A model generated the notes under the pieces. It saw only the letters and a program-made list of their open reading frames with translations. It had not been told where the DNA came from and made no database searches. Positions 9,803-48,660 of a stretch of DNA of 64,000 nucleotides are shown here, one piece after another. Position 1 is the first letter of the stretch. Each line of letters begins with the position of its first letter. The translations under genes and the position numbers were made by a program. The stretch comes from Dictyostelium firmibasis (lineage: Eukaryota > Evosea > Eumycetozoa > Dictyosteliales > Dictyosteliaceae), in NCBI GenBank assembly GCA_036169595.1, contig CM069769.1, forward strand, positions 1,040,001-1,104,000. Reading direction: 5' to 3'.

Positions 9803-12800
9803 TTATTTTATTATTGTTATGATCATAGGAGAATTATTGCAAAAAACTAATTGGATGTGACTTTAAAAAGAATTTTTTTTTTAAAATTAATATTTTTTTT
9901 ACTATTTTTTTGGGTTCTTTTTTTTTTTACTTACTTTAAAGGATCTAAACCAGAAGTATTAAATGAAAATGAATCTACTCCATTTAAACTTGTTGAGCTA
10001 AAGATTGTGTTTGTTAATTCGAGACCATTGATAATGACTCTAGTGGTTGAATTTGATATACCATGGGGGAAGAAATTAAAACCAATTACTTTAATTTCTG
10101 AATTAATTTGGACTGGGCCACTTGATGGGTATTCTATTTGGGTTACCGTTGAAATTGGATATTGGAAATAGAATGATTTATCGAAATAAACAAAGAAATT
10201 ATACATAATGTTTTTACTATATTCATTGTAAAAAGATATTAAAGATTTTGAATAGGATTTGATTTCTGATGGTACTGAACAACTGATTGTTTGAATGTAG
10301 TTATCTTGATTTGTGCTAATACTAATGATTGGACATTCATGACCTGATAATAATATTTTTGTTGAGCTATCAAATAATCTACCTGTAATTGTAAGAGAAT
10401 ATTGATATGGTGATGGAAGTGTACTGATTGGATTGATTACTTGATTTATAATTGGAATGATTGAACATGATTGTAATACTTTTCCACTTTGATAATCTTG
10501 AATTGTTGATTCTGTAAAACTACAAACTTTTGAGCCAAATGTAATAATTGAAAGACCATACCCAAGGTTAGTCGATGATTGGAAGAAATATGTTTGATAT
10601 GGTGAATTTGGATAACTGATCATTGATGGATTTGAAAGTTTTATTAATTGTAAAATATCTGAATTTATTTCGAAAAGGTAGTTTAATGAATTCTTTACAA
10701 TTGTGGTGTCATAAATACATGGATTCTTTGGATTGACATATTTTCCAAGTGTTTTAACCGTTGTGAATGATTCTGATGATTTAAAATAACTAAAGAATTT
10801 ACCACTTGTCCAATCGCTGTTTATTGAATTATCGATCCATTTTGAACCTATTGTTTCTTCGATATATTTGAGGCTATATTGTTCGATTTGTTCTAAACAT
10901 ACACCAATTAACAAAAGTGTACTCTTTAAATCTTTTTTATTTTCTCTGATTACTTTTTCTAACTCCTAATAAAGATAATAATTATTAGTTTTTTTGTAAA
11001 TTTTTTTGTTTTTCTTTTTTTGTTTTAAAACTTACTAAATTTGATAAATCACTGCATGTAAAATTACAACTTAAATAAGAGAAATAATCGTTTACATCGG
11101 TTACTTGACCACCTACAGTTACTTCGATATTCAAGTTGTTACCAACTCCTGTTGGTATATTACAAATAACTGATTTTGAATCGACCCATGTTATTGAATT
11201 ACAAGGAATACCTCCGATTTTAACGTTGCTTGATGAATCTGAAGAAATGCCAATTGGAATAAAGTTTGAACCAGTTATTGTAATATTGTTTCCTCCAAGG
11301 TATTTATATTCCTTTTTGTCAAGTTTTGGTTTATCATAAAAAGGTCTCAAAGAAGGATATGAGGATTGACTTCCTACTATCACAACTGGAATAAAACGCC
11401 CAATACCTTTTGGGACCATAGCTTTTACATGTGTTGAATTGATCCATGTCCATGATGGTGACAAATAAGAATTAATGATAATATAATGTATTGAACGCGA
11501 AGTTTGATTATTGACTTGAGCTGCGAGAGAAGTTGGAATAAAGTTTATACCTTTAATTATAGTTTCTCCACCATCAGTTGGAACAGGTATTAATGAAGAT
11601 TCTACTCTTGGATAATCGTAATTTATAAAATAATTATCTATTACACCATTTGAGTTATTGGTTGTTGAAATTTGTTTACCAACAGTTACTGAAACGATAG
11701 CTGATTGACCGAAACCTGGTGGTGCTAAACATGAAATCAATGTTGAACTCTTCCAATTGACATTGGTAAGATTTGTACCTTTAAGTGTAACAAAATTATC
11801 ATTGTTCCAAATAATTTCAGATGTGTTTAAACCAAGATTAATGATTTCTTGTGTTGGTGGAAAGTTTTTACCATTTAATTGGAAATTACCTCCATCAGTT
11901 GGAATAAAAATAGTAGGAGGTGTGTATAGTAAAACTGGTGCTTTATACGAGTAGGCGAATGTAAATGCTTGTGATGGAAACTTAATAGTACCGCTTCCGA
12001 CACCTAATGATGATTTGATACAAACAAAAACGTCATATTTCGAATAATCAAAAAATGCTGAATTCTCTAAAAAAACTGTTGATTCGACACATGGATGACC
12101 TGTTGCTGATCCTGAAATTGATGGAATTTTTGATGTGCTTGGACAATTCTTTTCAAGTTCGCAATAGATTGGTTCTTTTTCATAATTATCGATGAATGGA
12201 GAAATCATAGTTTTTGATCCATGATATTGACCAATAACAAAGAATCTATTGATAATACCTGTACTGAATGTTTGAGTAACTACTTTGACGATGGTTGGTG
12301 ATGGATATGAAAATGAAAGTGTGCCTGAGGTGACCAAACTTAACACATGTTGAGTATAAACTAACGCATTGCCGAAACCATTTGGAACGATAACTTTTAC
12401 AAATGTTGCTGATTTTGATACTATTGTTGCTTTAACTTTGGTGTTGTCGCCTGTAATATTAAAGTAAACTTCATAGTTGACTCCGTCTAAATTGATTCCA
12501 TTAATTGTAATAGTGTCTCCAGCTTTTGCGCTGGTTGGTGTTAAACTACTTAATGTAATAGGTAGTGAGTAATATGGACATGAAAGTAAGTGAGTTGGAA
12601 TATCTAATGTTTGGAAATTTGATATTATTGAATAATGGCATAGTAAACCGTTGTATTTAATAATTGCAAGACCTCCTGATGATGTTGAAGTAAGTTTGTG
12701 GAAAGATAAATCGATGTTTTGTGGGTATTTGTATTTGGTAACAGTTGAACTTTCTAGACGATTTGAAATTTCGATAAGATCATTGGTGATAGTTAAAAAG

Positions 12801-15646
12801 TCATTGATTGAGTTCTTTTCTTTATTTAAACCATTGTTGCCATATGTGCAAAGATTATCATGTGTGATTGCATTGATATATGGTGATATAGATGTTTGTG
12901 GTTTACCTGTTAATAACATTTTGTAAATTTGACCGCCCATCCAATCATCGTATGCTTTATCGTTTGAAACCCAAGTATCTTTAAATATTTGAAGTAATCT
13001 TTGTGCACCTGTACCATAGTTGTTGATTTCAGTGAAACAAACACCTAAATTTAAAAGAACGCTAGCTATGTTGGTAGAGACCAAACCGCCTGGTGCTGTA
13101 CAACTGTATGAACATGGATTTCCAAAGGCTGGTAATATTGGTGCATAGTTGATTGGGCATGCATACTTGGTTTTAATTTGAATTATGTATTGGCATGCCC
13201 AATCGTTGACAACTTCAGTAGCACTAACCACAGTGTATGTAGCTGTTGGATCACATATCATTTCTAAAATGTTTGTTCTTTGGTATCTACCTTGGCATTC
13301 TCTTGTTAGGTCATAGGGTGTAGTATGTTGTATTAGAATACTATTTCTATTTGTTAAAAACATTGTGGTATTTTTTAAACTACCGGCTTGAATTACAAGA
13401 CCATTAGCATATTGGCAAGCTTGATAATCAACACCAGGAATTGCATTTGGTAAATTCGTACAATAATTAACAGTATTACCGATACTGTAATATAGCTTTT
13501 TAAAAAATAAAAAGAAGAAAAAAAACAACAATGTTAAAATGTTTGTTTTTTTTTCATTAAAGTTTAATTATTTAAATTATTACGTACTCTATATGAGGTT
13601 CCACTAACTGGAATGTCAGCTGTTTTAGGATTATCCTTGGTTCTATTTAATAATTTTATTGTTAATAGGTATAAATATAAATATAAATATAAATATAAAT
13701 ATAAATATAAATATAAATATAAAAATAAATTGTTGTTGTTGTTATTATTATAAAATAGAAAAACTTACGTTTTTATAGGTGTAATATCGTAATATGTATA
13801 GTTGAATCTATTGTAATAGACTGTTGATTCACAAACATATTTGGTTTTAATTGTAACTGTGTAAGTGCATATTGGTGATTCTATAGTTGAAACTATTTGG
13901 TAATGTTGACTTTCATCGCAAGTTAAAAGAATAATAAAATTTCTATAAGAATTACCTGTGCAAATTGTTGCAGATGGTGAATATTCAATTTTGACTTGAT
14001 TATAATCGAATGTTACTTTTTGACCTAAACTTGATTGAGCGAGTGGATAGTATACATTATAAAATGGGTCATATTGACAAGCAAAATGAAAACTTTGATC
14101 ATTCAACCCATCACTACAAAGTTGTGCTCTATTACCAATATTAAAAATGATATCAAATTGATATCCACTCAAAGAGTGAGTTCCTGTATAGTTTCTTGTT
14201 GGATCCCTATAAATGAAATATTTTATTAAGTTTATATTTTGTAAAATTAGTAATTGTTATTGCTTTATGTAAAATTAATAATTGTTATTGTTTTTATTGT
14301 TGTGAAGGTGTAAAAGGATGTGAGCATAAGATTAAAAAAATTAATAAATTAATTACATACAACATTAATGGTGAAAGATCATAGAATTGTGATTGTTTGA
14401 ATAAACGTAATGTTGGACATGCATATTTTGTATACACTTTAACTTGATAAATGCATTGTGATTCAATGATAAATTTATCGACATAGTACTCGGTGGATGG
14501 ATCACAAACTAAAATATACTTTGATGAATATTTGTTACCATTTGTCGGGCATTCTGAAAAACCTGTTGTTGAACTATAAATTATTACTATTGTATTATTT
14601 ATGAATGTAATGGTTCTAGGTTGACTGATAGATCCTAACATTACTGATTTTGGTGTTGTTGCATATCTTGAATCAAGATTATAATCGATTGCTTTGTTGG
14701 CAACTGTTAAAATACATGATTGATAACTTAATGTTGTTGTACCAAAACTACTACATCTTTTTACATTTCCAAATAAATTGAAAAGAATATCTTTACTTTG
14801 ATCATTGTTGGTGATTTGGTACGATGTGCTTTCTAATCTGTGAAATTTGGGAAGATGTGTGATATTTTCAAAAAAAAAAAATTAATAAAAAAAAGAAAAA
14901 AAAAATAAGCGAAATAATAAAAAAAAAAATAAAAAAATAATTAAAAAAAAAACATTAAAAAAAAATAAATAAAAAATAAATAAAAAAAATAAATTAAAAA
15001 TAAAAAAAAAAATGAAAAAAACAAAATTTAAAACTTACAACTTCATTGGTGTAAAATCATAAAAGAGACCTTGATTAAATAATATTCCTCTATTTTTACA
15101 AACCAATGATGATTTAATGTAAATAGTGTGTTCACATAATACTCTTTGATTATTAGTGCTTGTAACAGTAAAATCAGAAGTTAGATCACAAGTTATCACT
15201 AAAATCATAGTTCTACGATTACCATTACCAGGGCAAGTTGTTGAAGGTAAAAGAGTTGATTGATATTTAATAGTAATACCATCTGTATTAAATGTGACAA
15301 AATGTGGTTCATTGAGTGAACCAATTGAATTTTTAGTTGAAAAAATGGTTCCTGTTGAATAACCATCTGGATTCATATGGTCATTAAAACATGGATTAAA
15401 ATAAACCATATAATTTGTTTGTATTCCACCAGTAAGTTCTTTTGTAAATTCTGCACGATGAGAACCTAGATGATCAGGGTAAATCGCTGGTCTTAAATCA
15501 TAATATTCATTATTTGCAAAATCATAAAAAACACATGATGATAGTGTACCATTTGTTGACCAATTTCTTGTATCAAATGTGTAACTACCAACTGTAAAAT
15601 AAATATAATATAATATGAATAATAAAATAGATATAATTATTTTCAT
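9803..15646 (-). CDS. MRH-TIG array copy A, secreted multidomain protein
   Basis: Seven exons join in phase: 15646-15039, 14837-14361, 14206-13769, 13642-13588, 13495-11036, 10965-9935 and 9860-9803; product 1,708 residues. A signal peptide (1-20) ends at VGSYTF. Four tandem MRH-like domains follow (about 37-185, 186-345, 346-495, 496-640), each with Y-D-[LFI]-x-P at the start, a CD pair in the middle and C-x-Y...K-x-x-x-C at the end. MRH3 and MRH4 keep the Gln-Arg-Glu-Tyr pattern of sugar-binding MRH domains; MRH1 and MRH2 lack the Gln. Then comes a C-x3-C helical module (654-), TIG1-TIG5 (about 837-1334), a second C-x3-C helical module and TIG6-TIG7. I see no membrane anchor, so secretion is likely. 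The family is not one I can name; an extracellular or endolysosomal glycan-binding role is inference. Confidence 0.82.
13663..13724. repeat. TATAAA hexamer repeat in intron 3 of copy A
   Basis: About ten units of AAATAT/TATAAA lie in the intron between exons 3 and 4 of copy A. Equivalent hexamer repeats occur in the same intron of copies C (about 26246-26300) and D (about 31103-31184), while copy B has a TTA triplet run there and E almost none. The intron microsatellite thus differs between copies whose exons are nearly identical. Confidence 0.8.
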
Positions 15647-16173: not shown

Positions 16174-22028
<5,855 letters not shown>

Positions 22029-22400: not shown

Positions 22401-25400
22401 TTAAATCATTGTTATTGTTATAGGGGAATTGTTACTAAAAACTAATTGGATCTGGCTGTAAAAGATTTTTTTTTTATTAATATATTTTTTTTTTTTTTTT
22501 TTTTTTTTTTATTACTTACTTTAAAGAGCCTAAATCAGAAGTATTAAATGAAAATGAATCTACTCCATTTAAACTTGTTGAGCCAAAGATTGTGTTTGTC
22601 AATTCGAGATTGTTGACAATAATTCTAATTTTTGAGTTTGATATACCATGGGGGAAGAAATTAAAACCAATTACTTTAATTGTGACACTTGATGGGTATT
22701 CTATTTGAGTTACCGTTGAAATTGGATATTGGAAATAGAATGATTTATCGAAATAAACAAAGAAATTATACATAATGTTTTTACTATATTCATTGTAAAA
22801 AGATATTAAAGATTTTGAATAGGATTTGATTTCTGATGGTACTGAACAACTGATTGTTTGAATGTAGTTATCTTGATTTGTGCTAATACTAATGATTGGA
22901 CATTCATGACCTGATAATAATATTTTTGTTGAGCTATCAAATAATCTACCTGTAATTGTAAGAGAATATTGATATGGTGATGGAAGTGTACTGATTGGAT
23001 TGATTACTTGATTTATAATTGGAATGATTGAACATGATTGTAATACTTTTCCACTTTGATAATCTTGAATTGTTGATTCTGTAAAACTACAAACTTTTGA
23101 GCCAAATGTAATAATTGAAAGACCATACCCAAGGTTAGTCGATGATTGGAAGAAATATGTTTGATATGGTGAATTTGGATAACTGATCATTGATGGATTT
23201 GAAAGTTTTATTAATTGTAAAATATCTGAATTTATTTCGAAAAGGTAGTTTAATGAATTCTTTACAATTGTGGTGTCATAAATACATGGATTCTTTGGAT
23301 TGACATATTTTCCAAGTGTTTTAACCGTTGTGAATGATTCTGATGATTTAAAATAACTAAAGAATTTACCACTTGTCCAATCGCTGTTTATTGAATTATC
23401 GATCCATTTTGAACCTATTGTTTCTTCGATATATTTGAGGCTATATTGTTCGATTTGTTCTAAACATACACCAGTTAACAAAAGTGTACTCTTTAAATCT
23501 TTTTTATTTTCTCTGATTACTTTTTCTAACTCCTAATAAAGATAATAATTATTAGTTTTTTTGTAAATTTTTTTGTTTTTCTTTTTTTGTTTTAAAACTT
23601 ACTAAATTTGATAAATCACTGCATGTAAAATTACAACTTAAATAAGAGAAATAATCGTTTACATCGGTTACTTGACCACCTACAGTTACTTCGATATTCA
23701 AGTTGTTACCAACTCCTGTTGGTATATTACAAATAACTGATTTTGAATCGACCCATGTTATTGAATTACAAGGAATACCTCCGATTTTAACGTTGCTTGA
23801 TGAGTCTGAAGAAATGCCAATTGGAATAAAGTTTGAACCAGTTATTGTAATATTGTTTCCTCCAAGGTATTTATATTCCTTTTTGTCAAGTTTGGGTTTA
23901 TCATAAAAAGGTCTCAAAGAAGGATATGAGGATTGACTTCCTACTATCACAACTGGAATAAAATACCCAATACCTTTTGGGACCATAGCTTTTACATGTG
24001 TTGAATTGATCCATGTCCATGATGGTGACAAATAAGAATTAATGATAATATAATGTATTGAACGCGAAGTTTGATTATTGACTTGAGCTGCGAGAGAAGT
24101 TGGAATAAAGTTTATACCTTTAATTATAGTTTCTCCGCCATCAGTTGGAACAGGTATTAATGAAGATTCTGCTCTTGGATAATCGTAATTTATAAAATAA
24201 TTATTTATTACACCATTTGAGTTATTGGTTGTTGAAATTTGTTTACCAACAGTTACTGAAACGATAGCTGATTGACCGAAACCTGGTGGTGCTAAACATG
24301 AAATCGATGTTGAACTCTTCCAATTGACATTGGTAAGATTTGTACCTTTAAGTGTAACAAAATTATCATTGTTCCAAATAATTTCAGATGTGTTTAAACC
24401 AAGATTAATGATTTCTTGTGTTGGTGGAAAGTTTTTACCATTTAATTGGAAATTACCTCCATCAGTTGGAATAAAAATAGTAGGAGGTGTGTATAGTAAA
24501 ACTGGTGCTTTATAAGAGTAGGTGAATGTAAATGTTTGTGATGGAAACTTAATAGTACCGCTTCCGACACCTAATGATGATTTGATACAAACAAAAACGT
24601 CATATTTTGAATAATCAAAAAATGCTGAATTCTCTAAATAAACTGTTGATTCGACACATGGATGACCTGTTGCTGATCCTGAAATTGATGGAATTTTTGA
24701 TGTGCTTGGACAGTTCTTTTCAAGTTCGCAATAGATTGGTTCTTTTTCATAATTATCGATGAATGGAGAAATCATAGTTTTTGATCCATGATATTGACCA
24801 ATAACAAAGAATCTATTGATAATACCTGTACTGAATGTTTGAGTAACTACTGTGACGATGGTTGGTGATGGATATGAAAATGAAAGTGTGCCTGAAGTGG
24901 CCAAACTTAACACATGTTGAGTATAAACTAACGCATTGCCGAAACCATTTGGAACAATAACTTTTACAAATGTTGCTGATTTTGATACTATTGTTGCTTT
25001 AACTTTGGTGTTGTCGCCTGTAATATTAAAGTAAAATTCATAGTTGACTCCGTCTAAATTAATACCATTAATTGTAATAGTGTCTCCAGCTTTTGCGCTG
25101 GTTGGTGTTAAACTACTTAATGTAATAGGTAGTGAGTAATATGGACATGAAGTTAAGTGAGTTGGAATATCTAATGTTTGGAAATTTGATATTATTGAAT
25201 AATGGCATAGTAAACCGTTGTATTTAATAATTGCAAGACCTCCTGATGATGTTGAAGTAAGTTTGTGGAAAGATAAATCGATGTTTTGTGGGTATTTGTA
25301 TGTGGTAACAGTTGAACTTTCTAGACGATTTGAAATTTCGATAAGATCATTGGTGATAGTTAAAAAGTCATTGATTGAGTTCTTTTCTTTATTTAAACCA

Positions 25401-28477: not shown

Positions 28478-28557
28478 TTAAATCATTGTTATTGTTATAG
28501 GGGAATTGTTACTAAAAACTAATTGGATCTGGCTGTAAAAGATTTTTTTTTTATTAA

Positions 28558-28603
<46 letters not shown>

Positions 28604-31600
28604 ACTTTAAAGAGCCTAAACCAGAAGTATTAAATGAAAATGAATCTACTCCATTTAAACTTGTTGAGCTAAAGATTGTGTTTGTCAATTCGAGATTGTT
28701 GACAATAATTCTAATTTTTGAGTTTGATATACCATGGGGGAAGAAATTAAAACCAATTACTTTAATTGTGACACTTGATGGGTATTCTATTTGAGTTACC
28801 GTTGAAATTGGATATTGGAAATAGAATGATTTATCGAAATAAACAAAGAAATTATACATAATGTTTTTACTATATTCATTGTAAAAAGATATTAAAGATT
28901 TTGAATAGGATTTGATTTCTGGTGGTACTGAACAACTGATTGTTTGAATGTAGTTATCTTGATTTGTGTTAATATTGCCAATGATTGGACATTCATGACC
29001 TGATAATAATATTTTTGTTGAATTATCAAATAATCTACCTGTAATTGTAAGAGAATATTGATATGGTGATGGAAGTGTACTGATTGGATTGATTACTTGA
29101 TTTATAATTGGAATGATAGAACATGATTGTAATACTTTTCCACTTTGATAATCTTGAATTGTTGATTCTGTAAAACTACAAACTTTTGAGCCAAATGTAA
29201 TAATTGAAAGACCATACCCAAGGTTAGTCGATGATTGGAAGAAATATGTTTGATATGGTGAATTTGGATAACTGATCATTGATGGATTTGAAAGTTTTAT
29301 TAATTGTAAAATATCTGAATTTATTTCGAAAAGGTAGTTTAATGAATTCTTTACAATTGTAGTGTCATAAATATATGGATTCTTTGGATTGACATATTTT
29401 CCAAGTGTTTTAACTGTTGTGAATGATTCTGATGATTTAAAATAATTAAAGAATTTACCACTTGTCCAATCGCTGTTTATTGAATTATCGATCCATTTTG
29501 AACCTATTGTTTCTTCGATATATTTGAGGGTATATTGTTCGATTTGTTCTAAACATACACCAGTTAACAAAAGTGTACTCTTTAAATCTTTTTTATTTTC
29601 TCTGATTACTTTTTCTAACTCCTAATAAAAATAATAATTATTAGTTTTTTTTGTAAAATTTTTTTTGTTTTTCTTTTTTTGTTTTAAAACTTACTAAATT
29701 TGATAAATCGCTGCATGGATATGAAAATGAAAATGAAAGTGTGCCTGAAGTGGCCAAACTTAACACATGTTGAGTATAAACTAACGCATTGCCGAAACCA
29801 TTTGGAACAATAACTTTTACAAATGTTGCTGATTTTGATACTATTGTTGCTTTAACTTTGGTGTTGTCGCCTGTAATATTAAAATTAACTTCATAGTTGT
29901 TTGCATTTAAATTAATGCCATTAATTGTAATAGTATCTCCAGCTTTTGCGCTGGTTGGTGTTAAACTACTTAATGTAATAGGTAGTGAGTAATATGGACA
30001 TGAAAGTAAGTGAGTTGGAATATCTAATGTTTGGAAATTTGATATTATTGAATAATGGCATAGTAAACCGTTGTATTTAATAATTGCAAGACCTCCTGAT
30101 GATGTTGAAGTAAGTTTGTGGAAAGATAAATCGATGTTTTGTGGGTATTTGTATTTGGTAACAGTTGAACTTTCTAGACGATTTGAAATTTCGATAAGAT
30201 CATTGGTGATAGTTAAAAAGTCATTGATTGAGTTCTTTTCTTTATTTAAACCATTGTTGCCATATGTACAAAGATTATCATGTGTGATTGCATTGATATA
30301 TGGTGATATAGATGTTTGTGGTTTACCTGTTAATAACATTTTGTAAATTTGACCGCCCATCCAATCATCGTATGCTTTATCGTTTGAAACCCAAGTATCT
30401 TTAAATATTTGAAGTAATCTTTGTGCACCTGTACCATAGTTGTTGATTTCAGTGAAGCAAACACCTAAATTTAAAAGAACGCTAACTATGTTGGTAGAGA
30501 CCAAACCGCCTGGTGCTGTACAACTGTATGAACATGGATTTCCAAAGGCTGGTAATATTGGTGCATAGTTGATTGGGCATGCATACTTGGTTTTAATTTG
30601 AATTATGTATTGGCATGCCCAATCGTTGACAACTTCAGTAGCACTAACCACAGTGTATGTAGCTGTTGGATCACATATCATTTCTAAAATGTTTGTTCTT
30701 TGGTATCTACCTTGGCATTCTCTTGTTAGGTCATAGGGTGTAGTATGTTGTATTAGAATACTATTTTTATTTGTTAAAAACATTGTGGTATTTTTTAAAC
30801 TACCGGCTTGAATTACAAGACCATTAGCATATTGGCAAGCTTGATAATCAACACCAGGAATTGCATTTGGTAGATTCGTACAATAATTAACAGTATTACC
30901 GATACTGTAATATAGCTTTTTAAAAAATAAAAAGAAGAAAAAAAACAACAATGTTAAAATGTTTGTTTTTTTTTTTTCATTAAAGTTTAATTATTTAAAT
31001 TATTACATACTCTATATGAAGTTCCACTAACTGGAATGTCAGCTGTTTTAGGATTATCCTTGGTTCTATTTAAATTTAATGATTTTATTTATTGTTAATA
31101 AGTATAAATATAAATATAAATATAAATATAAATAAATATATAAATAAATATAAATATAAATAAAAATATAAATATAAATATAAATTGTTGCTGTTGTTGT
31201 TATTATTATAAAATTGAAAAACTTACGTTTTTATAGGTGTAATATCATAATATGTATAGTTCAATCTATTGTAATAGACTGTTGATTCACAAACATATTT
31301 GGTTTTAATTGTAACTGTGTATACGCAAATTGGTGATTCTAGAGTTGAAACTATTTGGTAGTGTTGACTTTCATCGCAAGTTAAAAGAATAATAAAATTT
31401 CTTTTATAAGAATTACTTGCACAATTTGTTGTTGGAGATGGTGAATATTCAATTTTAACTTGATTATAATCGAATGTTACTTTTTGACCTAAACTTGATT
31501 GAACGAGTGGGTTGTATCTATTAATTTTTGGGTCATATTGACAAGCAAAATGAAAACTTTGATCATTCAACCCATCGCTACAAAGTTGTGCTCTATTACC

Positions 31601-33054
31601 AATATTAAAAACGATATCAAATTGAGATCCTTCTGTATTATGAGGTCCTGTATAGTTTTTTGCTGAGTCCCTATAAATGAATTTTTTTAAAATTTATATT
31701 TTATGTAAAATTAATAATTGTTATTGAAGGGATGTGAATATAGGATTAAAAAAATTAATTACATACAACATTAATGGTGAAAGATCATAGAATTGTGATT
31801 CTTTGAATAAACGTAATGTTGGACATGCATATTTTGTATACACTTTAACTTGATAAATACATTGTGATTCAATGATAAATTTATCGACATAGTACTCGGT
31901 GGATGGATCACAAACTAAAATATACTTTGATGAATATTTGTTACCATTTATCGGGCATTCTGAAAAACCTGTTGTTGAACTATAAATTATTACTATTGTA
32001 TTATTTATGAATGTAATGGTTCTAGGTTGACTGATAGATCCTAACATTACTGATTTTGGTGTTGTTGCATATCTTGAATCAAGATTATAATCGATTGCTT
32101 TGTTGGCAACTGTTAAAATACATGATTGATAACTTAATGTTGTTGTACCAAAACTACTACATCTTTTTACATTTCCAAATAAATTGAAAAGAATATCTTT
32201 ACTTTGATCATTGTTGGTGATTTGGTATGATGTGCTTTCTAATCTGTGAAATTTGGGAAGATGTGTGATATTTTCAAAAAAAAAAATAATAAAAAAAAAA
32301 AAAGAAAAAAAAAATTAGCGAAATAATAAAAAAAAAAAATAAAAAAATAATTAAAAAAAAAACATTAAAAAAAAATAAATAAAAAATAAATAAAAAAAAT
32401 AAATTAAAAATAAAAAAAAAATGAAAAAACAAAATTTAAAACTTACAACTTCATTGGTGTGAAATCATAAAAGAGACCTTGATTAAATAATATTCCTCTA
32501 TTTTTACAAACCAATGATGATTTAATGTAAATAGTGTGTTCACATAATACTCTTTGATTATTAGTGCTTGTAACAGTAAAATAAGAAGTTGGATCACAAG
32601 TTATCACTAAAATCATAGTTCTACGATTACCATTACCAGGACAAGTTGTTGAAGGTAAAAGAGTTGATTGATATTTAATAGTAATACCATCTGTATTAAA
32701 TGTGACAAAATGTGGTTCATTGAGTGAACCAATTGAATTTTTAGTTGAAAAAATGGTTCCTGTTGAATAACCATCTGGATTCATATGGTCATTAAAACAT
32801 GGATTAAAATAAACCATATAATTTGTTTGTATTCCACCAGCAAGTTCTTTTGTAAAACTTGCAAAATGTGCACCTTGGTGATCAGGACGGATTGTCGCTC
32901 TTAAATCATAATATTCATTATTTGCAAAATCATAATATACACATGATGATAGTGTACCATTTGTTGACCAATTTCTTGTATCAAATGTGTAACTACCAAC
33001 TGTAAAATAAATATAATATAATATGAATAATAAAATTGATATTATTACTTTCAT
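28478..33054 (-). CDS. MRH-TIG array copy D, short form lacking TIG2-TIG5
   Basis: Exons 33054-32447, 32243-31767, 31670-31227, 31065-31011, 30915-29695, 29621-28606 and 28532-28478 join in phase to 1,291 residues. All exons match the full-length copies except exon 5, which is 1,221 nt rather than 2,460. A deletion of 1,239 nt (413 codons) joins the end of TIG1 (SGTLSFSFSYP) directly to CSDLSNL, so TIG2-TIG5 and the first Cys of the second C-x3-C pair are gone. The join lies at ATG microhomology (about 29715) and keeps the frame; TIG1 also has a 6 bp duplication beside it. D differs from the others in TIG1 (GINLNANNYEVNF). The MRH region, second helical module and TIG6-7 are intact, so this looks like a shorter working paralogue rather than a pseudogene. 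Confidence 0.8.
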
Positions 33055-33585: not shown

Positions 33586-33689
33586 TCGAGAAGTGAAAAG
33601 TTTTCTATATTTATTATAATTATTAATTAAAAAGTATTTTTTTATTAAAATTTTTTTTTATAATTTAAAAATTATTAATTAAAAAGTAA

Positions 33690-34808: not shown

Positions 34809-35305
34809 TTGGAAATGTAAAAAGATGTGGTAGTTTTGGTTCAGTAGCATTAAGTTATCAATCATGTATTTTAACTGTTGTTAACAAAGCAATCGATTAT
34901 AATCTTGATTCGAGATATTCAACAACACCAAAATCAGTAATGTTATTTTTAAATCATCAGAATCATTCACAACGGTTAAAACACTTGGAAAATATGTCAA
35001 TCCAAAGAATCCATGTATTTATGACACCACAATTGTAAAGAATTCATTAAACTAACTTTTCGAAATAAATTCAGATATTTTACAATTAATAAAACTTTCA
35101 AACTCATCAACGATCAGTTATCCAAATTAACCATATCAAACATATTTCTTCCCATCATCGACTAACCTTGGGTATGGTCTTTCAATTATTACATTTGGCT
35201 CAAAAGTTTGTAGTTTTACAGAATCAACAATTCAAGATTATCAAGGTGGAAAAGTATTACCATGTTCAATAGATTTTACATGTGTTGAATTGATCCATGA
35301 TACAC
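34809..35305. pseudogene. Scrambled fragments of MRH-TIG genes
   Basis: Three array fragments are fused. 34809-34946 reads on the plus strand as MRH2 sequence (NLFGNVKRCGSFG to TPKSVML). 34947-35271 reads on plus as exon 6 sequence (FKSSESFTTVKTLGKY to STIQDYQGGKV) with internal stops. 35272-35305 is TIG4 sequence in the opposite, array-like orientation (the ELIHV region read antisense). The first two are inverted relative to the array. These joins do not follow exon order, so they reflect repeated breakage and end joining, not a processed copy. Confidence 0.7.
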
Positions 35306-35779
35306 TAAGAAAACTGTATATTCAACCTAACATTCTTAGTTTCCGTCTCATACAAAAAAAATTAATAGTAATAAATATAAGGTGCATTAAGCTTTATTAA
35401 ACTCCATCAGTGATATATATATATATAAATGGACACCTACCTTCTAGCACTGCAAATTATCTTCTCCCCCTGCCGTGGGTTTTTACATAGTGTTAAGTGG
35501 GGTCTCATAAAAATTTAATATGTAAAAATTAACTTTGAAAAAAAAAAGTTTCTCATATAAAAATTGTGGGAAGATTTCGATATATACCACCTGAAATCTT
35601 CGCAACCTGCCGTCTCCTAAAAATTCAAATAAAAGAGTATTTTTCAACCGATTCAGTCGGTGTAAAGATTTAACACAAACTGAATCGGTTAATAATTAAT
35701 TTTTATTTATATTTTTTTTTTAAAATTTAAAATTTTTTTTTTTGTGTGATTTTATTTTTTTTTTTTGTAATATTATTGT
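35306..35779. other. Noncoding, with perfect hairpin
   Basis: No gene is seen. There are two CCTGCCGT motifs (about 35468 and 35609) in less AT-rich patches and a perfect 12 bp inverted repeat, AACCGATTCAGT at 35646-35657 and ACTGAATCGGTT at 35679-35690, with a 21-base loop. This may be the end of an old mobile element. Confidence 0.45.
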
Positions 35780-36470
35780 TATTATTTTAATGAAGTAGTA
35801 GTGGTGGTGGTGGTGGTGGTGGATTAAATAATTTATTGCCTGCTGCTGATGAGGATGATGATGTTCCAACTAATTCTCAACCAAGTTTGAATAGTACTCA
35901 GCCAACCAATGTTGAGTTTGAACCTGAAATTTCATACACAGCTACACCACGTTTGTCCAATGTGGTTGGTGTAAATGTACCTGTAAATCAACATCCAATA
36001 TCTAACCAAATTCCAAATTGGTATACTTGCAGACACGACCCTTGCAACGGCAGATTTTCAGACACTGGATACAGGAATAAACATGATAAAAGTTTGGAAT
36101 TGCACCATAACAGATGTACACCAAATTGCCATGTGTGTTACTATTTCAAGCTACCAATTAATTTTAAAAAACCATATATTGTACCATCTGAAATAAGAAA
36201 CAACCAAGTTTAGAGAAGTGAAGACCAAATAATAATGGGATTTATAAGAGATGGTGAACTTCAAATTTAAAGGGAAATTGAATTTCAAAATCAAAGACGA
36301 GAGGAGGATTATGTTGAAGAAGAGGCTGAAGTAACAGAGGTGCAAACCAAAAAATGTATTCACTGGAATTGTAATGCTAGTCTGACTATAACAAATTGGC
36401 AAAGACATATCAAATTGGTGAATATAGTTTTAATATAGTTGCTGTTGACCAATATGATGAAGGTGACGAA
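35780..36470 (+). pseudogene. Zinc-finger-like ORF relic between the inverted repeats
   Basis: An open frame of coding composition runs about 35800-36213 (Gly run, PAADEDDDVPTNSQ, then WYTCRHDPCNGRFSDTGY...HDKSLELHH and CTPNCHVC), followed after a stop by acidic sequence and a second finger-like motif, CIHWNCNASLTITNWQRH. The C-x4-C...H-x-H spacing suggests C2H2-like or BED-like fingers as found in DNA transposon proteins. No transposase catalytic motif was recognised. The frame lacks a convincing start and is interrupted, so it is probably decayed or a spliced gene I cannot reconstruct. Confidence 0.4.
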
Positions 36471-36787
36471 CTTGATTTAGGTTTTCAAGATGTGTACGAT
36501 TCTGATGCTGATGATGAATACCAAAATGAAAATATCATGTTGGTCAGCCTGTGAAAGCTCTTGGCCAATTCAATAACGAATTTTAATTTTCGTTTGGCCT
36601 GCTGTTGTAGTTGGTTATAAATTTTCCACAACCTATAATGAAATTGAATATTTGTTGAAATTCGAGTGAGTGTTATGCTATATATATATATTATCCACAT
36701 ATGTTATTATAATAAACTATTTATTAATAAAATAGTCTATTAATTATAGAAACTAACCACATATATATATACATACGCAGTCAAGTA

Positions 36788-37012
36788 TTGGATTTTGTTG
36801 AGTATCAATGTACTCTAAATAATAATATTATTCCCTATATTAAAGATGAAGAGGTGGAATGGGTGAATAAACAAAAAATTAATACATTGATCAATGGTGA
36901 GAAATTATTGGTGGAAATTGAATCATTGTGTGGTGATAGAGGTCAAATAACTATAAAACTTACTGACTTTGCATTCAACAATGAAGGTAATAATGTTGAG
37001 CATTTTTTTTAG
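36788..37012 (+). other. Unassigned ORF, 74 residues, between the inverted repeats
   Basis: The frame MDFVEYQCTLNNNIIPYIKD to EGNNVEHFF has coding-like composition and begins just after TATATA repeats. It could be an exon of the same element as the zinc-finger relic. No family is recognised. Confidence 0.3.
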
Positions 37013-38670: not shown

Positions 38671-39021
38671 TTTATTTAATAAATTTCATCGAAGTACAAT
38701 TTTGGAAAGGATCATATTGACACTCCAAAATGTTAGGTGGTTATCTTCTTTAATTGGAAAGAAAACACATTATCATGTGAAATCTCACCACCATGATATA
38801 GTTGAGTAAATCTGACATACCAATGTTTGATTATTAAATGTTGTTGTTGAATTTGTTTAATCTTGATGTTGTTGAGTACATATAGAATTAAAAAAATTAA
38901 ATAATATTCGTAGAGTACTCGAAAAACCAAAAGAAATAAAAAAAACAAAATAAAATATTATTAAATTTTCTTTCAAAAAAAAAAATGCTCATTTAATTTC
39001 ATTTATTTGTTTTTATACTTT
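38671..39021. other. Flank between right arm and copy E
   Basis: A coding-like minus-strand stretch (38733-38870, LIIKHWYVRFTQLYHGGEIS) lies here, apparently an isolated gene fragment that I do not recognise. The rest is AT-rich. Confidence 0.35.
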
Positions 39022-42000
39022 CTATTTTTTTTTATTTGTATCGCCAATCTCTAATAAAATAAACCAATCTGTGGCAATTTTTATATATTTTATTTATTTT
39101 ATTATTTTGAAAAATTTTCATTTAATTAGTCTGATTGTCATAGGAGAATTATTACTAAAAACTAATTGGATGTAGCTATAAAAAGTTTTTTTTTTAAATT
39201 AATTTTTTTTTTGTTAATTTTTTTAAATTAATTTTTTTTTTTTTGTAAAAAAATTTTTTACTTACTTTAAAGAACCTAAACCAGAAGTATTAAATGAAAA
39301 TGAATCTACTCCATTTAAACTTGTTGAGCCAAAGATTGTGTTTGTCAATTCGAGATCATCAAAAGTGACTCTAATTGTTGAGTTTGATATACCATGGGGG
39401 AAGAAATTAAAACCAATTACTTTAATTGTGACACTTGATGGGTATTCTATTTGAGTTACCGTTGAAATTGGATATTGGAAATAGAATGATTTATCGAAAT
39501 AAACAAAGAAATTATACATAATGTTTTTACTATATTCATTGTAAAAAGATATTAAAGATTTTGAATAGGATTTGATTTCTGGTGGTACTGAACAACTGAT
39601 TGTTTGAATGTAGTTATCTTGATTTGTGTTAATATTGCCAATGATTGGACATTCATGACCTGATAATAATATTTTTGTTGAATTATCAAATAATCTACCT
39701 GTAATTGTAAGAGAATATTGATATGGTGATGGAAGTGTACTGATTGGATTGATTACTTGATTTATAATTGGAATGATTGAACATGATTGTAATACTTTTC
39801 CACTTTGATAATCTTGAATTGTTGATTCTGTAAAACTACAAACTTTTGAGCCAAATGTAATAATTGAAAGACCATACCCAAGGTTAGTCGATGATGGGAA
39901 GAAATATGTTTGATATGGTGAATTTGGATAACTGATCGTTGATGGATTTGAAAGTTTTATTAATTGTAAAATATCTGAATTTATTTCGAAAAGGTAGTTT
40001 AATGAATTCTTTACAATTGTGGTGTCATAAATACATGGATTCTTTGGATTGACATATTTTCCAAGTGTTTTAACCGTTGTGAATGATTCTGACGATTTAA
40101 AATAATTAAAGAATTTACCACTTGTCCAATCGCTGTTTATTGAATTATCGATCCATTTTGAACCTATTGTTTCTTCGATATATTTGAGGCTATATTGTTC
40201 GATTTGTTCTAAACATACACCAATTAACAAAAGTGTACTCTTTAAATCTTTTTTATTTTCTCTGATTACTTTTTCTAACTCCTAATAAAGATAATAATTA
40301 TTAGTTTTTTTGTAAATTTTTTTTTTGTTTTTCTTTTTTTTTGTTTTAAAACTTACTAAATTTGATAAATCACTGCATGTAAAATTACAACTTAAATAAG
40401 AGAAATAATCGTTTACATCGGTTACTTGACCACCTACAGTTACTTCGATATTCAAGTTGTTACCAACTCCTGTTGGTATATTACAAATAACTGATTTTGA
40501 ATCGACCCATGTTATTGAATTACAAGGAATACCTCCGATTTTAACGTTGCTTGATGAATCTGAAGAAATGCCAATTGGAATAAAGTTTGAACCAGTTATT
40601 GTAATATTGTTTCCTCCAAGGTTTTTATATTCCTTTTTGTCTAGTTTTGGTTTATCATAGAAAGGTATCAAAGAAACATATGAGGATTGACTGCCTACTA
40701 CCACAACTGGAATAAAATACCCAATACCTTTTGGTACCATAGCTTTTACATGTGTTGAATTGATCCATGTCCATGATGGTGACAAATAAGAATTAATGAT
40801 AACATAATGTGATGAACTCAAAGTTTGATTATTGACTTGAGCTGCGAGAGAAGTTGGAATAAAGTTTGTACCTTTAATTATAGTTTCTCCACCATCAGTT
40901 GGAACAGGTATTAATGAAGATTCTACTCTTGGATAATCGTAATTTATAAAATAATTATCTATTACACCATTTGGGCTATTGGTTGTTGAAATTTGTTTAC
41001 CAACAGTTACTGAAACGATAGCTGATTGACCGAAACCTGGTGGTGCTAAACATGAAATCAATGTTGAACTCTTCCAATTGACATTGGTAAGATTTGTACC
41101 TTTAAATGTAACAAAATTATCATTGTTCCAAATAATTTCAGATGTGTTTAAACCGAGATTAATGATTTCTTGTGTTGGTGGAAAGTTTTTACCATTTAAT
41201 TGGAAATTACCTCCATCAGTTGGAATAAGGATAGTAGGAGGTGTGTATAATAAAACTGGTGCTTTATAAGAGTAGGTGAATGTAAATGTTTGTGATGGAA
41301 ACTTAATAGTACCGCTTCCGACACCTAATGATGACTTGATACAAACAAAAACGTCATATTTTGAATAATCAAAAAATGCTGAATTCTCTAAATAAACTGT
41401 TGATTCGACACATGGATGACCTGTTGCTGATCCTGAAATTGATGGAATTTTTGATGTGCTTGGACAGTTCTTTTCAAGTTCGCAATAGATTGGTTCTTTT
41501 TCATAATTATCGATGAATGGAGAAATCATAGTTTTTGATCCATGATATTGACCAATAACAAAGAATCTATTGATAATACCTGTACTGAATGTTTGAGTAA
41601 CTACTTTGACGATGGTTGGTGATGGATATGAAAATGAAAGTGTGCCTGAGGTGACCAAACTTAACACATGTTGAGTATAAACTAACGCATTGCCGAAACC
41701 ATTTGGAACGATAACTTTTACAAATGTTGCTGATTTTGATACTATTGTTGCTTTAACTTTGGTGTCGTCACCTATAATATTAAAATTAACTTCATAGTTG
41801 ACTCCGTCTAAATTAATACCATTAATTGTAATAGTATCTCCAACTTTTGCGCTGGTTGGTGTTAAACTACTTAATGTAATAGGTAGTGAGTAATATGGAC
41901 ATGAAAGTAAGTGAGTTGGAATATCTAATGTTTGGAAATTTGATATTATTGAATAATGGCATAGTAAACCGTTGTATTTAATAATTGCAAGACCTCCTGG

Positions 42001-44871
42001 TGATGTTGAAGTAAGTTTGTGGAAAGATAAATCGATGTTTTGTGGGTATTTGTATTTGGTGACAGTTGAACTTTCTAGACGATTTGAAATTTCGATAAGA
42101 TCATTGGTGATAGTTAAAAAGTCATTGATTGAGTTCTTTTCTTTATTTAAACCATTGTTGCCATATGTACAAAGATTATCATGTGTGATTGCATTGATAT
42201 ATGGTGATATAGATGTTTGTGGTTTACCTGTTAATAACATTTTGTAAATTTGACCGCCCATCCAATCATCGTATGCTTTATCGTTTGAAACCCAAGTATC
42301 TTTAAATATTTGAAGTAATCTTTGTGCACCTGTACCATAGTTGTTGATTTCAGTGAAGCAAACACCTAAATTTAAAAGAACGCTAACTATGTTGGTAGAG
42401 ACCAAACCGCCTGGTGCTGTACAACTGTATGAACATGGATTTCCAAAGGCTGGTAATACTGGTGCATAATTAATTGGGCATGCATACTTGGTTTTAATTT
42501 GAATTATGTATTGGCATGCCCAATTGTTGGCAACTTCAGAAGCACTAACCACAGTGTATGTAGCTGTTGGATCACATGTCATTTCTAAAATGTTTGTTCT
42601 TTGGTATCTTGAACCTTGGCATACTCTTGTTGTGCTATAGGGTGTAGTATGATGTATTTGTATACCATTGTTTATTGGATTCATTGTTGTATTTTTTAAA
42701 CTACCGGCATGAATTACAAGACCATCAATATATTGGCAAGCTTGATAATCAACACCAGGAATTGCACTTGTTTGGTTCGTACAATAATTAACAGTATTAC
42801 CGATACTGTAATAAAGCTTTTAAAAAATAAGAAGAAGAAAAAAAGGTTAGTTTGTTTTTTTTTTTTTCATTAAAATTTAATTATTTAAATTATTTTTTAC
42901 TCTATATGTGGTTCCACTAACTGGAATATCGGCTATTTTTGGATTATCCTTGGTTCTGTTAAGTTTAATGGTTTTGGTTATTATTAATATAAATTGTTGT
43001 TGTTATTATTATAAAATTGAAAAACTTACGTTTTTATAGGTGTAATATCATAATATTTATGGCTCATTCCATTGTAATAGATTGTTGATTCACAAACATA
43101 TTTTGTTTTGATTGTTACTGTGTAAGTGCATATTGGTGATTCTATAGTTGAAACTATTTGGTAATGTTGACTTTCATCGCAAGTTAAAAGAATAATAAAA
43201 TTTCTATAAGAATTACCTGTGCAAATTGTTGCAGATGGTGAATATTCAATTTTGACTTGATTATAATCGAATGTTACTTTTTGACCTAAACTTGATTGAG
43301 CGAGTGGAGTGTAACTATTACTTCTTGGGTCATATTGACAAGCAAAATGAAAACTTTGATCATTCAACCCATCACTACAAAGTTGTGCTCTATTACCAAT
43401 ATTAAAAACGATATCATATTGATATCCACTAGTGGTATGAGATCCTGTGTAGTTTCTTGTTGAATCCCTGAAAATTTATATTTTATGTAAAATTAATAAT
43501 TGTTATTGTTATTGAAGGGTGTGAGTTTAATATTAAAAAACCAATACATACAACATTAATGGTGAAAGATCATAGTATTGTGATTCTTTGAATAAACGTA
43601 ATGTTGGACATGCATATTTTGTATACACTTTAACTTGATAAATACATTGTGATTCAATGATAAATTTATCGACATAGTACTCGGTGGATGGATCACAAAC
43701 TAAAATATACTTTGATGAATATTTGTTACCATTTGTGGGGCATTCTGAAAAACCTGTTGTTGAACTATAAATTATTACTATTGTATTATTTATGAATGTA
43801 ATGGTTCTAGGTTGACTGATAGATCCTAACATTACTGATTTTGGTGTTGTTGCATATCTTGAATCAAGATTATAATCGATTGCTTTGTTGGCAACTGTTA
43901 AAATACATGATTGATAACTTAATGTTGTTGTACCAAAACTACTACATCTTTTTACATTTCCAAATAAATTGAAAAGAATATCTTTACTTTGATCATTGTT
44001 GGTGATTTGGTATGATGTGCTTTCTAATCTGTTAAATTTAAATAATGTAAGATAATTTGAAAAAAAAAAAAAACAGGTCAAAATAACATATTTTATAGGA
44101 ATTGGCAAAAAAAAAAAAAAAAATAAAATATAAAAAAAAAAAAAAAAATTTGTGTTATATTTTATTTTTTTACAAGTTTGTGAAAAAAAAAAAATAATAA
44201 AATTATAAAAAATAAAAATTAAAAAAAATAAAAAAAAAAAAAAAATTTAAAACTTACAACTTCATTGGTGTAAAATCATATAAGAGACCTTGATTAAATA
44301 ATATTCCTTCATTTTTACAAACATATGATGATTTAATGTAAATAGTGTGTTCACATAATACTCTTTGATTATTAGTGCTTGTAAGAGTAAAAACAGAAGT
44401 TGGATCACAAGTTATCACTAAAATCATAGTTCTACGATTACCATTACCAGGACAAGTTGTTGAAGGTAAAAGAGTTGATTGATATTTAATAGTAATACCA
44501 TTTTCTCTAAATGTGACGAAATGTGGTTCATTGAGTGAACCAACTGAATTTTTAGTTGAAAAAATGGTTCCTGTTGAATAACCATCTGGATTCATATGGT
44601 CATTAAAACATGGATTAAAATAAATATCATAATTTGTCTGTATTCCACCTGTAAGTTCTTTTGTAAATTCTGCAAGATAAGCACCTGAATGATCGGGACG
44701 GGATATTGGTCTTAAATCATAAAAATCATTATTTCCAAAATCATAAAAAACACATGATGATAATGTACCATTTGTTGACCAATTTCTTGTATCAAATGTG
44801 TGACTACCAACTGTAAAATAAATATAATATAAAATGAATAATAAAATCGATATTATTATTTTTAATTTCAT
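39022..44871 (-). CDS. MRH-TIG array copy E, with extended C-terminus
   Basis: Exons 44871-44258, 44028-43552, 43467-43030, 42955-42901, 42816-40357, 40281-39266 and 39175-39022 join in phase to 1,737 residues. Domain order equals copy A. It is the most diverged copy: the signal peptide has an added Leu-Lys, the MRH1 loops differ, MRH3 ends NGMSHKYYDITPIKT, and intron 4 has a weaker donor (GTAAAA). The MRH4 start resembles copy B. The last exon has one extra T in a T run (39117-39123) relative to B, which shifts the usual stop and adds 32 residues (KMKIFQNNKINK to IGDTNKKK). All other frames are open. Confidence 0.8.

Positions 44872-44949: not shown

Positions 44950-44986
<37 letters not shown>

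Positions 44987-45639: not shown

Positions 45640-48660
<3,021 letters not shown>

What the first reader, a model, noticed from the sequence alone, without database searches (positions are those of the whole stretch)
9803..44871. Tandem array of five secreted proteins combining four MRH lectin-like domains with up to seven TIG domains
Hand-reconstructed seven-exon genes A to E each begin with a signal peptide and four Cys-rich domains with the MRH pattern (Y-D-x-x-P start, CD pair, C-x-Y...K-x-x-x-C end), then TIG domains. MRH domains occur in mannose-6-phosphate receptors, OS-9 and glucosidase II beta. I do not know of a described family that fuses an MRH tandem to a TIG tandem. No membrane anchor is visible, so they may act as soluble glycan receptors or decoys. 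The sequence shows the architecture; the MRH name and function are inferred.
Basis: partly seen in the sequence, partly recalled or inferred. Interest (0 to 1): 0.85.

Follow-up and report, generated by a model that had tools for sequence, protein, structure and literature searches.

The report
Tandem slime-mould lectins with sugar-receptor domains
A social amoeba carries five side-by-side genes for apparently secreted proteins whose front end is built from four copies of the domain found in animal mannose 6-phosphate receptors, one copy keeping all four sugar-contacting residues, so these and their longer cousins are testable candidates for phosphomannose-binding lectins in slime moulds.

Summary
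Confirmed and extended. The genome matches Dictyostelium firmibasis. Five genes (A-E, minus strand) each have seven GT-AG exons, a signal-peptide-like start, four MRH units, two unnoticed ~180-aa Cys-rich units (H1, H2), up to seven TIG-like units (fewer in D) and no clear membrane segment. MRH identity holds best for MRH3 (Pfam PRKCSH_1 over cut-off; PDB profile hits mostly CI-MPR and other MRH proteins, best E 0.0019) and MRH4 (CI-MPR, E 0.0067); MRH1 and MRH2 are MRH mainly by homology to MRH3. MRH3 keeps the Q, R, E, Y aligned with CI-MPR's sugar contacts in 16 of 16 sequences. The array looks like a truncated, soluble branch of a longer family (AX4 DDB_G0291065, 2441 aa) with the same domain plan plus a transmembrane-like segment. 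Copies share a near-identical backbone, but MRH1, MRH3, MRH4 and the last TIG exist in divergent versions whose sharing differs by module; the formal tree conflict is MRH3 against the rest. Most likely they are secreted lectins for mannose or phosphomannose glycans; binding is untested. I found no paper on the architecture, though UniRef already names members 'MRH domain-containing'. Both structure predictions failed.

The parts
9803..15646 (-). Gene A (1708 aa). Exons 15646-15039, 14837-14361, 14206-13769, 13642-13588, 13495-11036, 10965-9935, 9860-9803
   Evidence: spliced model, all GT-AG, one open frame
16174..22028 (-). Gene B (1705 aa). Exons 22028-21421, 21224-20748, 20651-20208, 20023-19969, 19886-17427, 17355-16340, 16231-16174
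22401..28125 (-). Gene C (1709 aa; the only window copy with the two extra Cys in MRH1). Exons 28125-27500, 27361-26885, 26788-26345, 26211-26157, 26062-23603, 23532-22520, 22455-22401
   Evidence: extra Cys
28478..33054 (-). Gene D (1291 aa; exon 5 shortened in frame, loses T2-T5). Exons 33054-32447, 32243-31767, 31670-31227, 31065-31011, 30915-29695, 29621-28606, 28532-28478
39118..44871 (-). Gene E (1705 aa). Exons 44871-44258, 44028-43552, 43467-43030, 42955-42901, 42816-40357, 40281-39266, 39175-39118
   Evidence: deposited model RB653_006925 (P0001) joins it to the upstream remnant and skips its start codon and signal peptide
13769..14206 (-). MRH3 exon of gene A. Sugar-contact set Q406 (codon 14076-14074), R450 (13944-13942), E471 (13881-13879), Y477 (13863-13861)
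   Evidence: alignment to CI-MPR domains 9 and 3; residue numbers; codon positions counted by hand from the exons
20208..20651 (-). MRH3 exon of gene B
   Evidence: PRKCSH_1 27.7 bits over cut-off 23, residues 406-496
26345..26788 (-). MRH3 exon of gene C
   Evidence: PRKCSH_1 22.7 bits on the exon alone, just under 23; finds the second locus on contig 3
31227..31670 (-). MRH3 exon of gene D
   Evidence: PRKCSH_1 23.1 bits, the only match of that family in the genome search
43030..43467 (-). MRH3 exon of gene E
18975..19511 (-). H1 unit of gene B (residues 654-832), Cys-rich, no Pfam match and no convincing PDB match
   Evidence: coordinates counted by hand
16861..17459 (-). H2 unit of gene B (residues 1338-1513, across intron 5)
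   Evidence: coordinates counted by hand
45623..48258 (-). Remnant of a sixth copy: TIG repeats with stops, hydrophobic Ala/Gly-rich segment, start of the Cys-rich tail; no MRH half seen beside it
   Evidence: similar C-terminal elements in P0002 and the contig 3 genes, by eye
34826..37009 (+). Annotated chimeric gene RB653_006913 (P0006) holding an H2 fragment in opposite orientation to the array (34942-35270) and an MRH2-like piece fused to other exons

Best explanation
These are secreted, soluble, multi-domain lectins of a dictyostelid MRH-TIG family. SHOWN from sequence: signal-peptide-like start; four MRH units; two H units; TIG units; no clear membrane segment; MRH3 (and probably MRH4) with the residue set that animal mannose 6-phosphate receptors use to hold the mannose ring; modules MRH1, MRH3, MRH4 and T7 present in divergent versions, differently shared among copies, on a homogenised backbone. 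INFERRED: MRH3, possibly with MRH4, binds terminal mannose or phosphomannose (methylphosphomannose occurs on Dictyostelium N-glycans) on secreted or surface glycoproteins; H and TIG units act as a spacer or protein-contact stalk; unit-wise gene conversion or unequal exchange between tandem copies varies the loops around an unchanged sugar-contact core and so tunes partner choice; the soluble copies act beside the longer, membrane-segment-bearing paralogues (DDB_G0291065 group) as diffusible partners or competitors.
For: Pfam PRKCSH_1 over its cut-off of 23 in gene B (27.7), P0001 27.1 and P0002 23.8, P0003 30.8 and P0004 26.6; CIMR over cut-off in P0003 (24.9 against 22.5). MRH3 profile against 177,635 PDB sequences: 7 of 8 hits at E<=10 are CI-MPR, ERLEC1, GNPTG or glucosidase II beta, best E 0.0019 (CI-MPR domain 9). 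MRH4 profile: ranks 1-5 of 10 hits are CI-MPR, best E 0.0067 (domain 3). [quoted passage not shown] The set is kept in 16 of 16 MRH3 units, across paralogues about 31% identical. Intron phases 2,2,2,0,0,2 match the contig 3 gene. Whole-gene dN/dS 0.43-0.60 in 10 of 10 pairs. Module histories: MRH3 nearly identical in B, C, D; MRH4 in A, C, D; T7 in C, D and in B, E; none of 15 topologies is accepted (AU p>0.05) by both MRH3 and MRH4. [quoted passage not shown]
Against: No binding, expression or localisation data. MRH1 alone hits no MRH protein in the PDB (0 of 2 hits) and MRH2 only weakly (2 of 3 hits, E 0.37-0.42); neither keeps the residue set. The longer relatives do not reach the PRKCSH_1 cut-off (P0012 no hit, P0010 15.5, P0008 19.8), nor does the gene C exon (22.7) or P0005 (no hit). 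MRH4's acidic residue is ambiguous: MAFFT picks E, HMMER puts CI-MPR's Glu on an Asp that is Asn in gene E. AlphaFold models failed (pLDDT 35 and 33). The tree conflict rests on MRH3: one topology, ((B,E),A,(C,D)), is accepted by MRH1, MRH4, T1 and T7 (AU 0.096, 0.233, 0.126, 0.965) and rejected only by MRH3 (3e-5). dN/dS is below 1 in every unit, so positive selection is not shown and relaxed constraint is possible. Copies A-D were not found as deposited proteins. The near-identical backbone could partly reflect assembly polishing. The N-glycan study did not include D. firmibasis (0 mentions).
Confidence: 0.6

Rival explanations
1. Lysosomal-type sorting or retrieval: the family, above all the longer membrane-segment form, is the unidentified dictyostelid receptor for phosphomannose-tagged enzymes, and the array proteins are soluble retrieval or competitor forms.
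For: D. discoideum 'appear to lack' MPRs, suggesting another receptor (passage in PMC6023087); phosphomannose glycans present (PMC11795075); D. discoideum lysosomal enzymes are recognised by CI-MPR's N-terminal site (title only, reference 46 of PMC7481795); MRH3 aligns with CI-MPR including the CQ motif; the long form has a strong hydrophobic segment (mean 3.11 at 2068-2086 of DDB_G0291065).
Against: Array proteins have no clear membrane segment. The long form's segment is followed by about 355 further residues with 14 Cys in the last 340, not an obvious short cytosolic sorting tail. A house-keeping receptor would not need five variable copies.
Confidence: 0.12
2. Kin or cell-cell recognition proteins analogous to the Tgr system: variable MRH and TIG modules are partner-specific recognition surfaces and sugar binding is secondary or lost.
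For: TIG stalks, tandem copies, module-wise variation; the tgr family is TIG-based, fast-evolving and polymorphic (PMC12324515, passages).
Against: No membrane anchor; Pfam Ig_TgrO1 scores only 14.0 against cut-off 27.9 on one of seven TIG-like pieces; MRH3's sugar-contact set is strictly kept while the loops vary.
Confidence: 0.13
3. Prey or immune lectins: secreted proteins that bind mannose-rich bacterial or fungal surfaces while feeding, diversified against prey.
For: Secreted, multi-domain, mannose-type residue set, varied loops; D. discoideum feeds on bacteria (PMC5758549, listing only).
Against: MRH domains are known to read eukaryotic N-glycans (recalled); nothing here points to bacterial ligands.
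Confidence: 0.1
4. Decaying tandem repeat: the array is a by-product of local duplication with little function.
For: A broken sixth copy (45623-48258), a chimeric fragment gene (34826-37009), incomplete D. discoideum counterparts (P0002, P0004, P0005), no array-type AX4 protein among the hits.
Against: Five intact frames of 1291-1709 codons with 30 of 30 canonical introns, dN/dS 0.43-0.60 in 10 of 10 pairs, and the contact set kept.
Confidence: 0.05

Closest known systems
DDB_G0291065 (D. discoideum AX4, P0012) and relatives P0007-P0011, P0013
   Same: MRH units, H units and TIG matches; MRH3 residue set kept in all seven.
   Different: 2441-2469 aa; about 420-430 residues before MRH1; extra TIGs, a transmembrane-like segment (4 of 4 checked) and a Cys-rich tail that the array genes lack; MRH4 set lost. 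Uncharacterised as far as found; 0 papers hold the identifier
[quoted passage not shown]
   Same: tandem MRH units, CQ motif, R eight residues before a Cys, E and Y near the last Cys pair
   Different: 15 MRH domains (PMC7481795), type I membrane protein with cytosolic sorting tail (recalled); no TIG or H units
Glucosidase II beta, OS-9, ERLEC1 (ER MRH lectins)
   Same: MRH domain; PRKCSH_1 is the Pfam model that fires
   Different: ER resident, one or two MRH, no TIG (recalled); the PDB matches to ERLEC1 and glucosidase II beta reach only the C-terminal third of MRH3
Tgr proteins (TgrB1, TgrC1)
   Same: extracellular TIG repeats, tandem and fast-evolving in dictyostelids (PMC12324515, passages)
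   Different: membrane proteins with cytosolic domains; no MRH mentioned in the passages read
Other MRH matches of this genome: C5:2779234 (MRH-EGF-TIG by eye) and C1:1759488 (several MRH with PT-rich linkers by eye)
   Same: found with MRH3 as query
   Different: different architectures; E 2.1e-5 and 9.5e-4

Membership tests
MRH domain | profile match to MRH families | tested here: met
   MRH3: PRKCSH_1 27.7 against 23 bits in gene B, but 22.7 for the gene C exon alone; CIMR 24.9 against 22.5 in P0003. MRH1 and MRH2 exons alone: no MRH-family hit; MRH1, MRH2 and MRH4 tied to MRH3 by hhalign
MRH domain | six conserved Cys in MRH spacing | tested here: met
   MRH3: six Cys invariant in 9 of 9 rows, aligned with CI-MPR Cys
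MRH domain | flattened beta-barrel fold | tested here: inconclusive
   AlphaFold pLDDT 35 and 33; no fold search run on such models
P-type (phosphomannose) lectin | Q, R, E, Y mannose-contact residues | tested here: met
   MRH3 16 of 16; MRH4 7 of 8 array-type by MAFFT, acidic residue ambiguous
P-type (phosphomannose) lectin | binding of Man-6-P glycans | not testable with these tools
   needs protein
MPR sorting receptor | transmembrane segment and cytosolic sorting tail | tested here: not met
   array genes have none by hydropathy; long paralogues have a hydrophobic segment of unclear topology
TIG/IPT | Pfam TIG over cut-off | tested here: met
   E 5e-25; 4 of 7 units singly
Tgr family | TIG repeats plus transmembrane and cytosolic domain | tested here: not met
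   no membrane segment; Ig_TgrO1 below cut-off

The most novel reading that the evidence does not exclude
Dictyostelids have their own P-type lectin system outside the MPRs: a conserved membrane-associated MRH-TIG protein (DDB_G0291065) that reads methylphosphomannose, and, in D. firmibasis, a soluble tandem array whose sugar-contact core is fixed while surrounding MRH loops and the terminal TIG are reshuffled between copies, giving a combinatorial set of glycoprotein-recognition molecules.
Probability: 0.2. Interest if true: 0.87.

Novelty: new variant of a known kind. Interest (0 to 1): 0.62.

Why it matters
Dictyostelium glycans carry methylphosphomannose (PMC11795075), yet D. discoideum is reported to lack mannose 6-phosphate receptors (PMC6023087). 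A family with an intact MPR-type contact set gives a named candidate (DDB_G0291065 in the laboratory strain AX4) for that gap. The D. firmibasis array also offers a natural experiment in which lectin modules vary around a fixed sugar-contact core.

Tried and rejected
Structure prediction of P0003 (MRH1-4) and of gene C exon 5 from shallow alignments (9 and 7 rows): mean pLDDT 35.0 and 33.3, so no fold search was run.

Single-sequence phmmer of exon 1 (MRH1) against the PDB: 4 hits, E 0.66 or worse, none an MRH protein. CIMR family search of the whole genome: no hit, and nothing rang in the controls. PRKCSH_1 genome search: 1 hit, gene D's MRH3 exon. H-unit profile against the PDB: 2 hits at E 0.29 and 1.2, judged chance.

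Considered and rejected: that P0001 (2117 aa) is the true gene. It omits gene E's start codon and signal peptide and begins in a broken TIG remnant, whereas all five copies have their own signal-peptide-like start.

Considered and rejected: that the copies are simple duplicates with one history. MRH3 and MRH4 share no accepted topology. But MRH1 accepts 5 of 15 topologies and T1 all 15 (AU p>0.05), so these two say little, and the other units agree on one tree that only MRH3 rejects. Tree tests were run on 5 of 14 regions.

MRH units that the patterns failed to cut, and that are absent from its counts for other units: P0007_M4, P0008_M4, P0009_M1, P0013_M1 and M2. P0008_M3 and P0013_M3 were cut by hand and checked; a stricter pattern had missed them (E-D-P instead of E-S/N-P in P0013). 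P0005 has no MRH3.

Papers: searches gave 0, 1, 0, 0 and 0 papers; others gave lists. PMC11193728, PMC12324515, PMC7481795, PMC11795075, PMC8669491, PMC8195759 and PMC6023087 were seen as passages only. PMC5758549 was seen in a listing only.
Full report
WHERE IT IS. The window is G000:C5:1040001-1104000 of a genome of 31,455,843 bases in 12 contigs. The published D. firmibasis TNS-C-14 assembly has 31.5 Mbp in 12 contigs (PMC11193728, passages), and the deposited protein RB653_006925 from D. firmibasis lies on a contig of 4,277,925 bases, the length of C5. I take the species as established by inference.

THE GENES. Five genes on the minus strand share one plan: signal-peptide-like start; MRH1 (exon 1); MRH2 (mostly exon 2); MRH3 (mostly exon 3); a 55-base mini-exon; exon 5 carrying most of MRH4, H1, T1-T5 and the start of H2; exon 6 carrying the rest of H2 and T6-T7; a short exon 7. 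All 30 introns are GT-AG and the frames are open. Intron phases are 2,2,2,0,0,2 in 5 of 5 genes. Gene D lost T2-T5 in frame. Identities are 92.3-96.7%. The only strong hydrophobic stretch is the N-terminal one.

MRH IDENTITY. Pfam: PRKCSH_1 exceeds its cut-off on MRH3 of gene B (27.7 against 23); the gene C exon alone gives 22.7, just under, with ATG27 16.6 and PH_met_RdRP 16.7 far below their cut-offs of 27. The D. discoideum homologue P0003 exceeds both PRKCSH_1 (30.8) and CIMR (24.9 against 22.5). The longer relatives do not reach the PRKCSH_1 cut-off (P0012 no hit, P0010 15.5, P0008 19.8). An MRH3 profile of 9 sequences searched against 177,635 PDB sequences returns 8 at E<=10, 7 of them MRH proteins: CI-MPR three times, ERLEC1 twice, GNPTG, glucosidase II beta; best E 0.0019; the eighth is UFM1. 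That ERLEC1 and GNPTG carry MRH domains is recalled. An MRH4 profile returns 10, the top 5 being CI-MPR (best E 0.0067), the other 5 one unrelated bacterial protein family at E 0.37-0.60. MRH2 returns 3, two of them CI-MPR at E 0.37 and 0.42; MRH1 returns 2, neither MRH. Profile-profile comparison ties all four together. So the MRH name is well supported for MRH3, fairly for MRH4, and rests on homology for MRH1 and MRH2. Structure prediction gave no usable model.

SUGAR-CONTACT SET. In one search the MRH3 query aligns its Gln (after 'AC') with CI-MPR Q348 and its Arg with R391 in domain 3 (hand count from the printed alignment); [quoted passage not shown] In domain 9 the query's Q, R, E, Y fall on positions 1292, 1334, 1354 and 1360 of chain 6um1, also by hand count. 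The Glu of domain 3 is off by one in the printed alignment. That paper's Fig. 8 legend names the four essential residues of domain 9 as 'Gln, Arg, Glu, and Arg'; I recall the fourth as Tyr. In gene A the spacing is 44, 21 and 6 residues. The set is kept in 16 of 16 MRH3 units: 5 window genes, 3 array-type D. discoideum models, and 8 long-type units (for 14; for P0008 and P0013). Nine of these were in the alignment, where long- and array-type rows are 31-32% identical. Array-type MRH4 keeps it in 7 of 8 by MAFFT (P0002 lacks the stretch with Arg), but the acidic residue is uncertain. MRH1 keeps only R in the array and R, E, Y in the long-type units cut; MRH2 keeps no full set. MRH3 has no Trp in A and E.

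THE WIDER FAMILY. MRH3 of gene C finds a second locus on contig 3 with two genes at about 35-37% identity. The first, spliced from L042, repeats the plan: four MRH units, a 46-base mini-exon, two H units, TIGs, phases 2,2,2,2,0,0,2. Searching with it (7,990 best-sharing candidates scored) found 7 proteins of 2441-2469 aa from D. firmibasis (P0007, 82% identical to the query), D. dimigraforme, D. citrinum, D. discoideum and D. cf. discoideum, including AX4 DDB_G0291065, named 'MRH domain-containing' in UniRef. A strong hydrophobic segment lies between residues 2068 and 2120 in 4 of 4 checked (P0007, P0010, P0011, P0012), followed by a tail with 14 Cys in the last 340-360 residues in 7 of 7. The array genes' exon 7 starts like the long form's last exon (LNYIQLVFSNNS... 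against SNFISFFYLNGF...) and stops after 18-19 codons. D. discoideum P0002 and the broken sixth window copy do carry TIGs and the start of that tail, so I infer that the array genes lost their C-terminal part, rather than that the long form gained one. Array-type relatives in D. discoideum isolates are P0002-P0005; P0002, P0004 and P0005 each lack part of a domain and P0003 is a partial record. None is from AX4; absence from AX4 is not proven, as its genome was not searchable here.

H UNIT. H1 and H2 are about 180 aa and homologous (24-32% identity between types); 13 columns, including 3 Cys and 2 Trp, are invariant in 7 of 7 rows. No Pfam match and only chance-level PDB matches. It is an unrecognised domain of this family.

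EVOLUTION OF THE ARRAY. Mean dS over gene pairs is 0.013-0.027 in MRH2, H1, T2, T3, T5, H2 and T6, but 0.09-0.15 in MRH1, MRH3, MRH4 and T7; T1 (0.076) is intermediate; the signal region (0.15, 23 codons) is too short and T4 (0.19) unreliable because gene D has only 3 codons there. Variable columns: MRH1 43 of 178 (6 of them an insert), MRH3 29 of 147, MRH4 32 of 153, T7 26 of 92 (6 an insert), against H1 4 of 179 and MRH2 6 of 161. In MRH3 the changes fall at columns 10-28, 56-64 (just after Q52), 87-97 (just before R98), 118, 124 and 139-147; Q, R, E and Y never change. Modules are shared differently: MRH3 differs by 1-2 of 441 bases among B, C, D, by 39-43 between these and A or E, and by 31 between A and E; MRH4 by 4-6 among A, C, D but 33-43 from B and E, which differ by 39; T7 by 2 between C and D, 5 between B and E, 28-33 from A. 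AU tests over all 15 topologies: MRH3 accepts one, which MRH4 rejects at 0.005; MRH4's best is rejected by MRH3 at 7e-5, T7's best by MRH3 at 3e-5. Told against this: the tree ((B,E),A,(C,D)) is accepted by MRH1, MRH4, T1 and T7, so the formal conflict is MRH3 against the rest; the others differ in branch lengths (B-E 39 of 456 in MRH4, 5 of 258 in T7) rather than in accepted topology. Unit-wise gene conversion or unequal exchange is the simplest cause. dN/dS is 0.46-0.72 in the variable units and below 1 in every unit, so constraint is indicated and positive selection is not.

FUNCTION. Dictyostelium N-glycans carry methylphosphomannose (PMC11795075, passages; other species than D. firmibasis) and D. 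discoideum 'appear to lack' MPRs (PMC6023087, passage). A secreted protein with an intact MPR-type contact set is most simply a lectin for mannose or phosphomannose. Which ligand, and whether the role is recognition, sorting, feeding or modulation of the membrane form, is open; my ranking is in the explanations.

NOVELTY. Domains are known kinds and UniRef already labels members MRH; the MRH-H-TIG architecture, the kept contact set and the modular array were not found in print (searches, in an open-licence library only).

Noticed in passing
33677-34793 and 38658-37487: Inverted repeat of about 1.2 kb, 88% identical, flanking the chimeric gene RB653_006913 between genes D and E; looks like a mobile or recombined insert.
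   Followed up: partly
39118-47508: Deposited gene model RB653_006925 fuses the broken sixth copy to gene E and skips gene E's signal peptide: probable annotation error. Copies A-D were not among the deposited proteins found.
   Followed up: partly
45218-45512: About 300-base fragment similar to the exon 1/intron 1 region in opposite orientation, 80-81% identical, upstream of gene E.
   Followed up: no
28125-27500 versus exon 1 of A, B, D, E: MRH1 of gene C keeps two extra Cys and a six-residue insert also present in D. discoideum P0003 and P0005; the other four window copies lack both Cys together, as if one disulfide was lost.
   Followed up: partly
L044 (C5:2777001-2782000): A further gene with an MRH unit, EGF-like repeats and a TIG-like stretch: a second, different MRH-TIG architecture (read by eye).
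   Followed up: no
L045 (C1:1757001-1763000): A gene with several MRH-like units joined by Pro-Thr-rich linkers, one unit with Q, R, E and Y by eye, next to a saposin-like small reading frame.
   Followed up: no
55814-57988: Glycosyl hydrolase family 31 gene (Pfam E 6e-106) 11 kb upstream of the array; glucosidase II alpha belongs to that family and its beta partner has an MRH domain (recalled), but the link may be chance.
   Followed up: no
61174-62159 and 62676-63719: Direct repeat, 78% identical over about 1 kb, in a fatty-acid hydroxylase gene region.
   Followed up: no
8649-9692: Class I fructose-bisphosphate aldolase reading frame directly downstream of gene A on the other strand; marks the array's border.
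   Followed up: no
whole genome: At least 149 TIG matches at E<=0.001 from one family search (150 of 310 candidates scored), many of them clustered.
   Followed up: no
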